In this document: one piece after another, positions 46,527 through 52,515 of the stretch | Position numbering within the stretch: position 1 is the stretch's first letter | Layout of the letters: every line of letters starts with the position of its first letter | NCBI GenBank assembly: GCA_016806715.1 | Contig: CP060531.1 | Coordinates: 1,101,966 to 1,165,965, forward strand | Direction: 5' to 3' | Source: Thermoplasmatales archaeon | GTDB taxonomy: Archaea; Thermoplasmatota; Thermoplasmata; Thermoplasmatales; Thermoplasmataceae | DNA: 64,000 nt | Notes under the pieces: generated by a model | Seen by the model: only the letters and a program-made list of their open reading frames with translations | Told to the model about the DNA's origin: nothing | Databases searched by the model: none | Program-made: the position numbers and the translations under genes

Positions 46527-47258
46527 ATGAGCATGCCGATCTCCAGCAGGAAGAAAAGAACTGCGATCTATTCTACCATCATTGTCCTTGTTATCATATT
46601 TGGCATCATATTTCCCGTGTATCATCTCTATGATCCACTGTTCAGGAACAATCCTGCAATAACTGTCAATGGCGGTCATTATAATGTGACGTACGCTGAG
46701 GACTTCAAAAACATAAATGGTACCTACTTTCATTTCTCAACAAGTGCATCCACATCCACGGTAGTGGATAATGATTATCCGAACTCTACACTTGGAGTCA
46801 GTCTATCCAATGGCGTTATATTCTACACCCCCAGCTCAGCTTCCCCGGCGAATGCTCTAAATATAAATTATAACCTCGTGATCTACGGTCATTTTACAGG
46901 TGATCTTCATCCAGATTCCATTACAATATCTTTTGGCGCAATTGGAAAGAATCAGAGTAGCGTCATCTTGACAACGTTCGCACCGCCGTTGTCCAACGCC
47001 ATTCCAAAGGCTGTAAATCTGTCGCCTTATAATCTTGGCAACCTCATACTCGCCGGTGCTGGCAATGTGAGTGCAAAAGCAGGATTGGTCAACGAAAGCA
47101 GCAACGCTCAATTCTATAATTTCTATGTTTCAGTAATGATGCAAGTATTTGTAAAGTGGCTTACTGGAAGTTCTCATCAATTTGATCTCAGTGCACAAGT
47201 AAATGGTCTGAGCAAGCCAGTCAATTCTACCTTATCAATGACAGTTGTGGAGACGTAG
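46527..47258 (+). CDS. Membrane-anchored surface protein, paralogue 1
   Basis: Unknown family. A short basic start (SRKKR), one N-terminal hydrophobic segment (AIYSTIIVLVIIFGIIFPVY), then about 205 residues outside the cell, with many Asn/Ser/Thr and N-x-S/T sequons. It shares its plan and end pattern with the genes at 47344 and 49169: basic start, one TM helix, an F-x-P/Y linker, a beta-rich ectodomain with a 'H(L/F)xPxLxPxS(I/V)xL'-type stretch, and a hydrophobic beta end. Probably an uncleaved signal anchor. Likely cell-surface partner of the secreted proteins encoded downstream. Confidence 0.7.
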   Translation: MSMPISSRKKRTAIYSTIIVLVIIFGIIFPVYHLYDPLFRNNPAITVNGGHYNVTYAEDFKNINGTYFHFSTSASTSTVVDNDYPNSTLGVSLSNGVIFYTPSSASPANALNINYNLVIYGHFTGDLHPDSITISFGAIGKNQSSVILTTFAPPLSNAIPKAVNLSPYNLGNLILAGAGNVSAKAGLVNESSNAQFYNFYVSVMMQVFVKWLTGSSHQFDLSAQVNGLSKPVNSTLSMTVVET

Positions 47259-47343: not shown

Positions 47344-48057
47344 ATGGCAGTATTAAACCGAAAAACATCAGCTTTGATTGCTACCAGCATAATAGTTGTC
47401 GTACTGATTATTGCATTAGTACCGTTCAATGAAATAATCGGACCACATTTCTCTGTTACAGAAAAAGAGGTGCAGTCCACGATGACAGGAGTTTTTGCAA
47501 ATTCTTCTTCAACCAACAACTCAATTTTTGGTTCCGATGCACAGTCAACCACACTCATCATTGAACCCAATAAAGTGACTTCATCCTTGCAGATGAATCT
47601 GAGTAGAATTTTTGCTTTCCTTGATGTCGTCGGCAATACTATACAGATTTTATTCAACCTATCTATCTCCGGAACTATTTCATCGACCCTAAATCCTTCC
47701 AGTGTCACTCTTGAAGCGAACACTATTGCCCCGAACCTTTCCTATGCCCAGCCATTGAAACAGTGGCTTTCATTCTCGACATTCTTTTCGAGATACAATA
47801 ACGCGTCAATTGAAGGAGCATCCGCACTGCCAAATATGGCTGGAGTCTCTAACACTTACCATCTCCTGAACAGACCGACCTGGAATATATTTACCGGCTA
47901 TAGCGAGCCAACGTATCACTTTTCCATATCCGGTGAGGTGAACCTTATGATCATTCCATATATCGGGGAACACATAATCAACATATCCGCCCAGATGAAC
48001 ATATACAGTCACACTGTGTTTTCCTCGGTCAACCTGACCCTGATTAACGAGGTATAG
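47344..48057 (+). CDS. Membrane-anchored surface protein, paralogue 2
   Basis: Same plan as paralogue 1: basic start (NRKTS), signal-anchor helix (ALIATSIIVVVLIIALVPFN), then an ectodomain of ~205 residues with sequons (NSS, NNS, NLS, NAS). The motif ISGTISSTLNPSSVTLEANT parallels similar stretches in paralogues 1 and 3. A GAGGAGA ribosome site lies before the ATG. The stop is followed 3 nt later by the ATG of the decayed secreted protein, whose ribosome site GAGGT overlaps this gene's last codons. This pairing is repeated downstream (49169 with 49908). Confidence 0.7.
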   Translation: MAVLNRKTSALIATSIIVVVLIIALVPFNEIIGPHFSVTEKEVQSTMTGVFANSSSTNNSIFGSDAQSTTLIIEPNKVTSSLQMNLSRIFAFLDVVGNTIQILFNLSISGTISSTLNPSSVTLEANTIAPNLSYAQPLKQWLSFSTFFSRYNNASIEGASALPNMAGVSNTYHLLNRPTWNIFTGYSEPTYHFSISGEVNLMIIPYIGEHIINISAQMNIYSHTVFSSVNLTLINEV

Positions 48058-48059
48058 TT

Positions 48060-48834
48060 ATGAGAACAAAAGAAGTGAAGAACTTTAGGATTTTGGAAGT
48101 ATGCATAATTGCTTCTGTTGCGATTTTTCTACATTTGGCAAAGGCTTGGCAGGCGTTGTTTTTGGTCAATCTTGTTCCGCCTCTGTTTCCACACACACCG
48201 GTTGGGCAGGGTACAATGGAAATGACTCCATATATATGACAACAGCACTAACTAATATTGCTAACGTTTATCTGCTTCCACAAGAGAACAAAACGGTGTA
48301 CCAGAGTAACGTCGATGGAGTAATAAATACTTCAAATCAGGTAGCTCTTACCTTTGGAACAAGTTTATTGTCAGCGTCTGGAACTACCGTCAGCCATGAG
48401 TTTTATGATGCCTCCGACAATCAACTAACCATCGTGTACGGGCTTTCAATCGCGACTGCCACGGATACCTTCTCGGAAAGCAATGAAATCACACAGAGTT
48501 ATCAGACAGATACATTAGGCAAGTCGGTCATTTCCTCGGAAGTAACAGGCAGCGGGCTTTCTATGGTTTCAGGGGATACCCAGGGACAAGATTGCGCCTC
48601 GGCAGTGAATGAGAGTATAACCAGATAGCTGCTTCCAACGCAACTCTTAGCCTGGCCGAGAGCATTTTAATGGCAGGAATTGGAGCCATTCCACATCCCG
48701 GATATTTCACTATACCGGTTTCGATAGCTATGAGTGACATAGGCGTAAGTTCACAGAATAATAACACTGTTTTGTTCGATGGGAACATGGAACACACATC
48801 CCTGTTGTATCATATAGAACAGGTTGTGCAATAG
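48060..48834 (+). pseudogene. Secreted surface protein with two frameshifts
   Basis: Frame 1 starts at ATG 48060 with a signal peptide (MRTKEVKNFRILEVCIIASV then AIF). The body continues in another frame from about 48125 (GLAGVVFGQ, then THTGWAGYNGNDSIYMTT) to 48628. A third frame resumes near 48610 (EYNQIAASNATLSLAESILM, GIGAIPHPGYFTIP) and ends at 48834. Joined, it gives ~255 aa. The GWAGYNGN motif is shared with the Hint-domain protein at 49908, so they are paralogues. Two independent shifts argue for gene decay rather than programmed frameshifting; sequencing error cannot be excluded. Confidence 0.72.
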
Positions 48835-48910
48835 GCCTGAGCAGAATAGTGTGTTATCTATCCTGTCATCCCTTTCCTTCCCGGGATGATCCATGGATAA
48901 CCATGTAACG

Positions 48911-49168: not shown

Positions 49169-49894
49169 GTGATCTCAACGTCACGAAGAAAGATTTATAT
49201 TACAGCGGCGGTGATTTTTGTCATTGCTCTCCTTATCCTGTCATTCTTCCCATACAGAGAATTTATTGAGCCTGATATTTCCGTAAACAGAGGGTATTCT
49301 TCTGCAAATTTGACCGGAAACCTGTCAGGCGTAAGTATTAATTCTCCAATTAAGTTCGGCATTAACGGCGCTTCTACTTCCATCAACGACGGCAATTTCC
49401 CTGAGTCATTTCTTAACATTTCGCTGAACGGTTTATCATGGCACAATGGACCGCCTTTTGGCGGTTATCCGGGAAATGAAAGCAGCGGAGTGTTTTACAT
49501 CTGGGTCAACTTGACCGTTGCAGGACATCTTGCACCCAATTTGGACCCAATGAACCTGGTTCTGGAGACAAACGCTTCGGGACCGGATTCACTGGGTTAT
49601 ATTACTTCCAGTGGTCTTGCATCGGAATTCACAGGCGTAAATGCTACACAGGATTGGACAACCAGCTTCGCTGGCTATAACTCATCTTCTGCAGAATTCA
49701 GTTTTAATAATGAACCCAAATTGTCTATTTTTGGCAACTATCCTCATAGTTTCTATAATTTCGAGATTCACACTGTTTTCCTTGTAATGATAGCCAGTTA
49801 TTCCGGTACGCATGACTTCGGGTACAGTGCCGAGCTTACAGGTCTCCGGCAAGCCGCTTCCGTTGGAATCACTCTTATTCTGATCGACAATTGA
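49169..49894 (+). CDS. Membrane-anchored surface protein, paralogue 3
   Basis: Same plan as paralogues 1 and 2: basic start (STSRRK), signal-anchor helix (ITAAVIFVIALLILSFFPYR), then an ectodomain of ~200 residues with sequons (NLT, NLS, NGS-like, NAS, NSS, NAT). The stretch VAGHLAPNLDPMNLVLETNA matches the GHFTGDLHPDSITIS segment of paralogue 1 in position and type. The start is GTG 49169. The stop TGA (49892-49894) overlaps a GAGGTG ribosome site for the next gene, so the pair is coupled. Confidence 0.72.
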   Translation: MISTSRRKIYITAAVIFVIALLILSFFPYREFIEPDISVNRGYSSANLTGNLSGVSINSPIKFGINGASTSINDGNFPESFLNISLNGLSWHNGPPFGGYPGNESSGVFYIWVNLTVAGHLAPNLDPMNLVLETNASGPDSLGYITSSGLASEFTGVNATQDWTTSFAGYNSSSAEFSFNNEPKLSIFGNYPHSFYNFEIHTVFLVMIASYSGTHDFGYSAELTGLRQAASVGITLILIDN

Positions 49895-49907: not shown

Positions 49908-52515
49908 ATGAAACATTCGTTTGCAAGAACCAATGCACTGGTGTTAGCCCTGTTGCTTATTTTAATCGTGCTTTGGGTCGTTCCTGGAGAATCCTCGGCT
50001 CAAACTCCAACAGTAGCATACGTGCAATACGGCTGGGCAGGGTACAATGGGAATTATTCCGTGTACTTGTCGTACTCTAAGTATGAAGAATCCGTATGTG
50101 TTGCCAACAAAGACTGTACACACCGTTCAAGGAGGGAACCCCAATTATGAAACGAATGGCGTTGTATTGTCTACCCATCCTATTGATACGAACTCCGGAC
50201 CTATATCACTAAACGAACAGTACAACCCGGCTATTGGACAGATGCAGATTTATATCCCGATCGAGGTAGGAAGCGGAACTAATCAAACAAGGTTTAATGA
50301 CGTTAACGATGGAGGGTATAACGTTAATGGTGTAGGGAAACTAGTTTCTTCTGAGTCCATATCAGGATTCCCTGCGGATCAACTGAACTCTCTTTATACT
50401 GATAGTGGCGGTATTAACGTAACATTCCCTAATGGTGTTGTAGGCGGTACTTCCACTTCAGAATATAACGTAGTTAACCAATCACTAGTTATTGCGCTTG
50501 GACTGGTGCCAATTCTTGGGGCCTTCTTTTCATATGCAGGATTTGCGGCATCGTTTGCGAATTATGGAGCATCGTCCACCGCGACCCTAGGTGGAAATGG
50601 AAATGCCAGCATAATTGAGAGTCTGGCCGTAAATCCCAACTCTGGTAATTATAGTAAATGGATTAATGGAACGGGAGCAAACGAAGGGTACGACTCTGGA
50701 TTCGGTCAGAACGTTTTCGCATCTGAGATGATTGGGTCGCTGTTGATCGACAAAACAGACTTCGGTAGAGCAGGAGGTATGAATTTGAACTCCACAAACT
50801 ATCTTGGAGAATTTTTGGAACCCACGGGCTGGAATATAGAAGAAAGTGGGTCCAGCTGTAACATCAAAATTCCATTCGTTCCGGCAAACACAATTACAGG
50901 AACTGTCTATGAAAATGGTGTTATAGCCGCTAACCAAGATATAGTCCTGACCCAGACCAATGCAAACAACAGCGTCACACAATTTTACGAAACTACTAAC
51001 AGTAGCGGTCAGTATAGGTTCTTTGCCCAGCCCGGTGTTACGTACGAGATCCAGGCAATAATTCCGGGCGGGTTGTCCAACGGAGTTCAGGAGACCCTTG
51101 CTAATGACGAGAACGGTACTCCCATGAACTTAGCCATAACAGCGCCTGCAGGGGCTGTTTTCACGGAGTCTGGCCTCACATCCGGAGCCACCTGGTCTGT
51201 CACCATGAATGGTACCACAGTATCTGGAACCACGAGCACATTGACCATACCTGACCTGCAGTATGGTGACACATATTCATACAGCATCAACGCCCAGGGA
51301 TTCACTGCTGATCCATCAAGCGGTTCAGTCTCGGTGAACGATCTCACCACGTCAGAGAGTGTCGGGTTCAGCCCTTCCGACAGCCTCACCTTCTCTGAAT
51401 CCGGTCTCGCATCCGGTACTCAATGGTCCCTCAAGCTGACATATCCGGGCGGAACACAGAGTACACCAAGCACAACGGGTTCCAGCATTACCTTCAACAA
51501 TGTGCCATACGGTACCTATGACTGGACATACAGCATCCCATCTGGATACGGCATCCTCTACCAGTCCGGTACAGCGAGCATATCGCCGACCTCAAACACC
51601 GCAACGGAAACAGGGTCGTACTATGCCGTGGGTGACGTAACGTTCACTGAAACGGGGCTGTCTGGTCAGACCTGGGGGGTTTCCATCGGCACTTCATCAC
51701 AGTCCACATCAGCGTCAACCATCGTGTTTACAAATATAGCAGCGAATTCTGGGGTACCTTATACCGTGAGTGCACCATCCTCATACATCGCAAGCCCGCA
51801 GACAGGGGAAGCGCAGGAGGGTACCACAACAAACATCGCGTTCACGTATGAACCTGGTTATTCAGTGACGTTCACAGAGTCCGGATATCCCATAGCCCCA
51901 GGCGACGAATGGGGCGTTTCGATGGGTGGTACTACAATATGGTCACAGACCTCATCCCTGAGTTTCACCATGCATGACGGCTCGTACTCATATTCCGTAC
52001 CAAAAACGGCAAGTTCCAAATACTACTATATCGCCGACCCGAGCAGCGGCTCTGTGACCGTGAGCGGAAGCAATGTGAACGTACAGGTACATTTCTACGA
52101 AGATGGGCCAGTGAGGTGCGTCAACGCCACCACTGAGATACTCATGGCCAATGGCACATACATCCATGCTGACCAGGTCATTGCCGGCGATGAGATCATG
52201 ACCCTCAACACGACAACGGGAGCGATGCAGCCGGAGATCGTGCAGCATGTATATGTAACGGCGGAGACGTCGCAGTATACGATTAACGGATATCTAAGGA
52301 TCGCCCAAAACCAGGACGTATTGACACAGAACGGATACGTATCCGCTGACAACCTCACAACTCATGACTGGATGTACAATGTCTATTCGCATTCCTGGGA
52401 GAAGGTGCGCAGCATATCTTCATCCACTGGAACATACACAATGTACGACTTCCAGGTATCCGGCAACAGTGATTTCATCGCTTATTCAAGCGTAATAGAG
52501 AGCACCACCCCCTAG
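49908..52515 (+). pseudogene. Secreted repeat protein with C-terminal Hint domain, one frameshift
   Basis: Frame 1 from ATG 49908 encodes a signal peptide (ALVLALLLILIVLWVVPGES) and GWAGYNGNYSVYLSYSKY. Deleting one A in GAAGAA (~50085-50090) rejoins it to the long second frame (NPYVLPTKTVHTVQGGNP ... ) ending at 52515, ~870 aa in all. Order: unknown globular part; CarboxypepD_reg-like domain (TVYENGVIAANQDIVLTQTN); four ~80-residue FTESGL-type beta repeats starting near 51161, 51392, 51643 and 51871; then a Hint domain from 52111 (VRCVNATTEILMANGTYIHA, Cys codon 52117). The chain stops right after the last Hint strand. With one indel it may be recent decay or an assembly error. Confidence 0.75.
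51161..52105 (+). repeat. Four FTESGL-type beta repeats
   Basis: Protein-level tandem repeats of ~75-83 residues, each beginning F-T/S-E-S/T-G and continuing with a W-S/G-V/L strand (TWSVTMNG, QWSLKLTY, TWGVSIGT, EWGVSMGG) and ending in a hydrophobic strand (YSYSINAQGF type). Such repeats are common in secreted Thermoplasmata proteins and are probably Ig-like or PEGA-like stalk modules. Confidence 0.65.

What the first reader, a model, noticed from the sequence alone, without database searches (positions are those of the whole stretch)
52111..52515. C-terminal Hint domain on a secreted archaeal repeat protein
After four FTESGL repeats the protein ends in a Hint fold beginning with Cys (codon 52117) in VRCVNATTEILMANG and ending in YDFQVSGNSDFIAYS. 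There is no C-extein and no HN end, and the block-B histidine place seems to hold Q (AQNQDVL). Hint domains self-cleave at the Cys, so this could release or ligate the surface region, but the missing His may reduce or alter the chemistry.
Basis: partly seen in the sequence, partly recalled or inferred. Interest (0 to 1): 0.6.

Follow-up and report, generated by a model that had tools for sequence, protein, structure and literature searches.

The report
Histidine-less Hint domain on secreted proteins
Many Thermoplasmata archaea, a group that includes extreme acidophiles, end secreted proteins with a Hedgehog/intein-type (Hint) self-processing domain in which the normally essential histidine has been replaced once, and kept, as glutamine; this suggests an altered way of cutting or attaching surface proteins, but activity is untested.

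Summary
Residues from Cys 52117 to the stop at 52515 form a Hint domain: a profile of its relatives hits solved inteins and bacterial intein-like (BIL) domains (E 2e-10), and an AlphaFold model (pLDDT 90.8) matches DnaB intein, BIL and Hedgehog structures. The block-B histidine is indeed Gln, and there is no C-terminal His-Asn.

About 50 relatives across the class Thermoplasmata form one clade (SH-aLRT 97). Gln sits at the block-B position in 47 of 49 (Glu in 2), Cys or Ser at position 1 in all but one, Asp at F:4 in 43 of 49, while the C-terminal Asn chemistry is gone. Secreted Hints from other Thermoplasmatota keep His, mostly with HN. The domain almost always ends its protein, often after a poly-Gly linker, on varied secreted proteins including two pro-kumamolisin-type proteases, and is under purifying selection.

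Best reading: a Hedgehog/BIL-like, N-terminal-only self-processing domain with a rebuilt, possibly acid-adapted active site. Cleavage is inferred, not shown. Both copies in this genome are interrupted upstream of the domain (frameshift; IS3-type insertion).

The parts
49908..50126 (+). Signal peptide and first residues of the N-terminal domain (GWAGYNGNYSVY motif), one frame away from the main ORF
50047..52515 (+). Main ORF of the secreted repeat protein with C-terminal Hint (822 aa as listed)
51160..52100 (+). Four FTESGL-like repeats (limits approximate)
   Evidence: read from the sequence
52117..52512 (+). Hint domain, Cys1 to the last residue
52117..52119 (+). Cys1, the would-be nucleophile (Cys or Ser in 46 of 47 relatives)
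52312..52314 (+). Gln at block B position 10 (His in inteins, BIL and Hedgehog); Gln in 47 of 49 relatives
52447..52449 (+). Asp at block F position 4 (43 of 49 relatives)
49169..49894 (+). Partner gene directly upstream: N-terminal membrane helix plus predicted beta domain
47344..48057 (+). Second copy of the partner gene
46527..47258 (+). Third copy of the partner gene

Best explanation
This is a secreted, C-terminal, Hedgehog/BIL-type processing domain of a Thermoplasmata-specific Hint clade. Proposed mechanism: after export, Cys1 (Ser1 in two lineages) attacks the preceding carbonyl (N-S or N-O acyl shift). The (thio)ester is then taken by water or another nucleophile, so the N-terminal surface or enzyme part is released, or attached at its new C-terminus to something on the cell. 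The C-terminal Asn step of inteins has been lost. The active site was rebuilt around Gln at B:10 and Asp at F:4; one reason may be that a His outside an extreme acidophile would be permanently protonated. Shown here: the fold, the homology, the one-clade distribution of Gln, conservation of the Cys/Ser1-GlnB10-AspF4 set, terminal position, modular use on different secreted proteins, purifying selection. Inferred: that cleavage happens, the acceptor, and the acid adaptation.
For: Fold and homology. Position 1 is Cys 42, Ser 4 (two lineages: L012+L072 and L126+L153), Tyr 1, i.e. it changes mostly to the other residue able to do an acyl shift. Gln B10 and residue 1 are the 2nd and 4th least variable columns, F4 the 7th. 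Asp F4 is enriched with Gln: 39/45 against 7/26. Residue 1 lies 130-173 residues before the stop in 46 of 47, Gly-rich linker in 26 of 47. Attached to unrelated secreted proteins, two with pro-kumamolisin domains. dN/dS about 0.03-0.14. [quoted passage not shown]
Against: The residue described as most conserved in inteins is gone in every member. No cleavage data. One member has Tyr at position 1 (L080).
Confidence: 0.48

Rival explanations
1. The domain is catalytically dead and kept as a stable beta-rich C-terminal cap or docking module, for example binding the membrane-anchored partner protein encoded just upstream.
For: Block-B His and the HN end are both lost; position 1 is Tyr in L080; Hint is not needed for export; a membrane partner gene is adjacent to 13 of 19 subfamily-I places in the window's family.
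Against: A dead pocket should drift, yet position 1, B10 and F4 are among the least variable columns. The partner tracks the N-terminal domain rather than the Hint, and other Hint subfamilies mostly lack it.
Confidence: 0.3
2. Cys1 and Gln B:10 close an internal Cys-Gln thioester, making the Hint a covalent adhesion or anchoring domain, as in thioester domains of Gram-positive adhesins and complement.
For: Cys and Gln are both nearly invariant and, in known Hints, residue 1 and B:10 lie close together (established knowledge). Thioesters form between Cys and Gln side chains in surface proteins (PMC4450167).
Against: Gln stays where Cys is Ser or Tyr, and Cys stays where Gln is Glu (L066, L022), so the two are not strictly tied. 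The fold is unrelated to known thioester domains. The Cys1-Gln distance was not measured.
Confidence: 0.1
3. A decaying relic of an intein or BIL element in fast-turning surface genes.
For: Several copies are broken: a frameshift in the window gene, an IS3-type insertion in the second copy, stops in G036:C37, G034, G070 and G039.
Against: One Gln clade kept over at least seven family codes (f1, f3, f5, f8, f14, f15, f27), low dN/dS, and repeated attachment to new partners. The breaks looked at in the window gene, its second copy and G039 lie upstream of the Hint.
Confidence: 0.07

Closest known systems
Bacterial intein-like (BIL) domains, e.g. 2lwy (C. thermocellum) and 6y75 (T. thermophila BUBL1 locus)
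   Same: Hint fold (TM about 0.85), Cys1, no +1 nucleophile, non-intein hosts
   Different: Gln instead of block-B His; no HN end; nothing follows the domain in 45 of 47 members beyond a short tail
Hedgehog C-terminal autoprocessing (Hog) domain, 1at0
   Same: C-terminal position on a secreted protein, Cys1, often Gly at -1, N-terminal chemistry only
   Different: No block-B His; about 132-150 residues with no sterol-recognition extension; no sequence-level match (Pfam Hint PF01079 only 0.05 in one member)
T. kodakarensis CDC21-1 intein
   Same: Hint with Cys1 that lacks the block-B His
   Different: A true splicing intein using a Lys outside the motifs (PMC4031507); here Gln is fixed in a whole secreted clade
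His-type Hints of other Thermoplasmatota families
   Same: Nearest relatives found; several with poly-Gly before Cys1 and in large extracellular-looking proteins
   Different: Keep His at B:10 and usually VHN, often internal and in tandem
Thioester domains of Gram-positive adhesins
   Same: Conserved Cys and Gln on surface proteins
   Different: Unrelated fold; not known to be a Hint (PMC4450167)

Membership tests
Hint superfamily | Hint fold | tested here: met
   pLDDT 90.8; Foldseek E 2e-9 to 1mi8 and TM 0.71-0.86 to inteins, BIL, Hog
Hint superfamily | Sequence-profile similarity with blocks A, B, F, G in order | tested here: met
   Profile A1 to 7cfv 2e-10, 2lwy 3e-7; below Pfam gathering scores for single members
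Hint superfamily | Cys or Ser at position 1 | tested here: met
   Cys 52117; 46 of 47 relatives
Class 1 intein | Block-B T-x-x-H | tested here: not met
   A-Q-N-Q in the window; Gln in 47/49, Glu in 2
Class 1 intein | C-terminal His-Asn followed by Cys/Ser/Thr and a C-extein | tested here: not met
   Ends VIESTTP; relatives ANGxLLDxK or similar at the C-terminus
BIL domain | Hint without a +1 nucleophile in a non-intein host | tested here: met
   No residue-1 follower of that kind; varied secreted hosts
BIL domain | Block-B His retained | tested here: not met
   Gln
BIL domain | Self-cleavage | not testable with these tools
   Needs expression
Hedgehog Hog domain | Block-B His and sterol-recognition region | tested here: not met
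   Gln at B:10; no C-terminal extension
Internal-thioester domain | Cys-Gln side-chain bond | not testable with these tools

The most novel reading that the evidence does not exclude
A Hint domain that works without the superfamily's catalytic histidine, with Gln B:10 (and Asp F:4) either driving an acid-tolerant acyl shift that releases or anchors surface proteins of extreme acidophiles, or closing an internal Cys-Gln thioester for covalent attachment.
Probability: 0.3. Interest if true: 0.82.

Novelty: new variant of a known kind. Interest (0 to 1): 0.56.

Why it matters
Block-B His is described as the most conserved intein residue, with two His-less inteins known in 2014, one of them a pseudogene (PMC4031507); a later review says several are known (PMC7664689). 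A whole secreted clade with Gln fixed there gives a natural experiment on how the Hint fold activates a peptide bond, perhaps at very low pH, and could supply acid-stable cleavage or ligation tags. It also offers a candidate route for releasing or anchoring surface proteins in Thermoplasmatales, most of which lack an S-layer or wall (PMC5155288).

Tried and rejected
True intein: no HN, no C-extein, unrelated extracellular hosts. Chance or low-complexity artefact: rejected by profile, model and conservation. Relic: rejected as the main reading by the single Gln clade, low dN/dS and modular spread. Viral origin: one scan of viral contigs with the window domain found no relative; a profile scan was not possible. 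The partner protein's fold gave no significant PDB match (best E 4.5e-3, TM 0.2) and no Pfam family. Literature: no paper in the library holds both 'Hint domain' and 'Thermoplasmatales', and two wider searches gave nothing on the family. L136 (Ser1, unclear His/Gln alignment) was left out of the counts; L045 and L130 lack the start of the domain.

Full report
OBSERVATION. The ORF at 50047-52515 ends with a 132-residue domain whose first residue is the Cys coded at 52117. Alone it scores only marginally against Hint families (Pfam Intein_splicing E 9e-4 below its gathering score; PDB 4o1r E 0.011). Fifteen relatives aligned as A1 give a profile that hits the DnaX mini-intein 7cfv at E 2e-10 and the BIL domain 2lwy at 3e-7, with the family's Gln opposite the block-B His. 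AlphaFold on that alignment gives pLDDT 90.8, and Foldseek against PDB returns DnaB intein 1mi8, BIL 6y75 and 2lwy, and Hedgehog 1at0 (TM 0.71-0.86).

THE GENE HERE IS BROKEN. The signal peptide (ATG 49908) and the first residues of the N-terminal domain lie one frame away from the main ORF. The start motif matches that of relatives, so a frame break near 50088-50100 is likely, either real or a sequencing error. The genome's only other member (G000:C1:611676-612137) has its N-terminal part separated from the rest by an IS3-like transposase ORF (the IS3 assignment is from reading the translation). A third related N-terminal domain at 48060-48835, without a Hint, is also out of frame.

FAMILY. 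Profile searches find the domain in 28 of 117 genomes of the order. Within the class, 69 of 400 genomes match, but those include ordinary inteins and His-type Hints that were told apart by reading them. Among 49 Gln-type domains block-B position 10 is Gln in 47 and Glu in 2. Position 1 is 42 Cys, 4 Ser and 1 Tyr of 47, after moving two sequences (L126, L153) whose Ser MAFFT had offset. Block F position 4 is Asp in 43. By column entropy B10 is the 2nd, position 1 the 4th and F4 the 7th least variable column. The C-terminal HN is gone. The motif is ANGxLLDxK in two subfamilies and more variable in the third, to which the window belongs.

ORIGIN. Hints from other families of the phylum, and from f17/f21 of the same class, have His at B:10 and usually VHN at the end. 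A tree built without the B10 column puts all 45 Gln-type rows on one side of a branch (SH-aLRT 97) and needs one change. This was a quick search with many open forks, and one origin is not proved. The starting profile was built from Gln-type rows, which could bias sampling, but His-type rows were still found well above threshold. Asp at F:4 goes with Gln (39/45 against 7/26, Fisher p 9e-7); rows are related, so the p value overstates the evidence. It suggests a coupled rebuild of the pocket.

ANATOMY. Residue 1 lies 130-173 residues before the stop in 46 of 47 proteins, with one exception (L111). Residue -1 is Gly in 35 of the 46 members with a letter there, and 26 of 47 have at least four Gly in the last ten residues; the window's copy, with Arg at -1, is atypical. 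Upstream parts differ: FTESGL repeat proteins, two proteins with pro-kumamolisin activation domains from different Hint subfamilies (L076, L122), CarboxypepD_reg and DUF2341 proteins, and unannotated ones. Several complete relatives begin with a signal-peptide-like stretch (read). The Hint changes more slowly than the rest (94% against 43% identity between the G072 paralogues), with dN/dS about 0.03-0.14 in unsaturated pairs.

PARTNER. Directly upstream of subfamily-I Hint genes lies a gene for a protein of about 240 residues with an N-terminal membrane helix and a predicted beta domain (pLDDT 72.5, no significant fold match). In the window's family, comparing positions, 13 of 19 subfamily-I places (fragments counted) have it adjacent; several of the rest are fragments or lie at contig ends. 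It also occurs away from Hint genes, in several cases upstream of proteins with the same N-terminal start motif, so it seems to track that N-terminal domain rather than the Hint. The window has three copies.

MECHANISM. Reading 1 (0.48): N-terminal-only processing as in Hedgehog and BIL domains, with a rebuilt pocket. Reading 2 (0.30): a dead, structural or docking domain. Reading 3 (0.10): an internal Cys-Gln thioester. Reading 4 (0.07): a relic. The best discriminator available here is that the would-be catalytic positions are among the most constant in the domain and that position 1 changes mostly to Ser, which favours a pocket with a job (readings 1 or 3). No tool here can show cleavage. 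The acid argument rests on known Thermoplasmatales growing near pH 1 (PMC5155288) and on the low acidic-residue content of Gln-type proteins (mean 0.068 against 0.083-0.132 for four His-type ones of the class; other His-type proteins range widely).

NOVELTY. The Hint superfamily is known. A secreted clade with Gln fixed at the His position was not found in the library searched, and His-less inteins are described as rare (PMC4031507, PMC7664689). It is best called a new variant of a known kind.

Noticed in passing
49908-50130: Signal peptide and main ORF of the Hint gene are in different frames; a one-base break near 50088-50100 is likely.
   Followed up: partly
48060-48835: A related N-terminal domain (GWAGYNGNDSIYMT) without a Hint, broken into at least three frames; probably a pseudogene.
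   Followed up: partly
L064 909-4144 (G000:C1 about 608908-612143): The genome's second Gln-type Hint gene is split by an IS3-like transposase ORF.
   Followed up: partly
46527-47258, 47344-48057, 49169-49894: Three copies of an unannotated family with an N-terminal membrane helix and beta domain, found in 21 of 77 genomes of the family, usually upstream of the repeat-protein genes.
   Followed up: partly
L076 8670-10940 (-), L122 1023-4205 (+): Pro-kumamolisin (S53-type) proteases carrying the Gln-type Hint at the C-terminus, from two different Hint subfamilies.
   Followed up: partly
L135 1798-7518, L164 1-2262: Large proteins with two (L135) or four (L164) tandem canonical His-type Hint domains in other Thermoplasmatota families.
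   Followed up: no
L072 6114-6116 (-): In-frame TGA separates the N-terminal domain from the Hint-bearing remainder in G039; several other copies in MAGs are also broken.
   Followed up: no
L111 85-2883: The one Gln-type Hint found that is not C-terminal: about 320 residues follow it.
   Followed up: no
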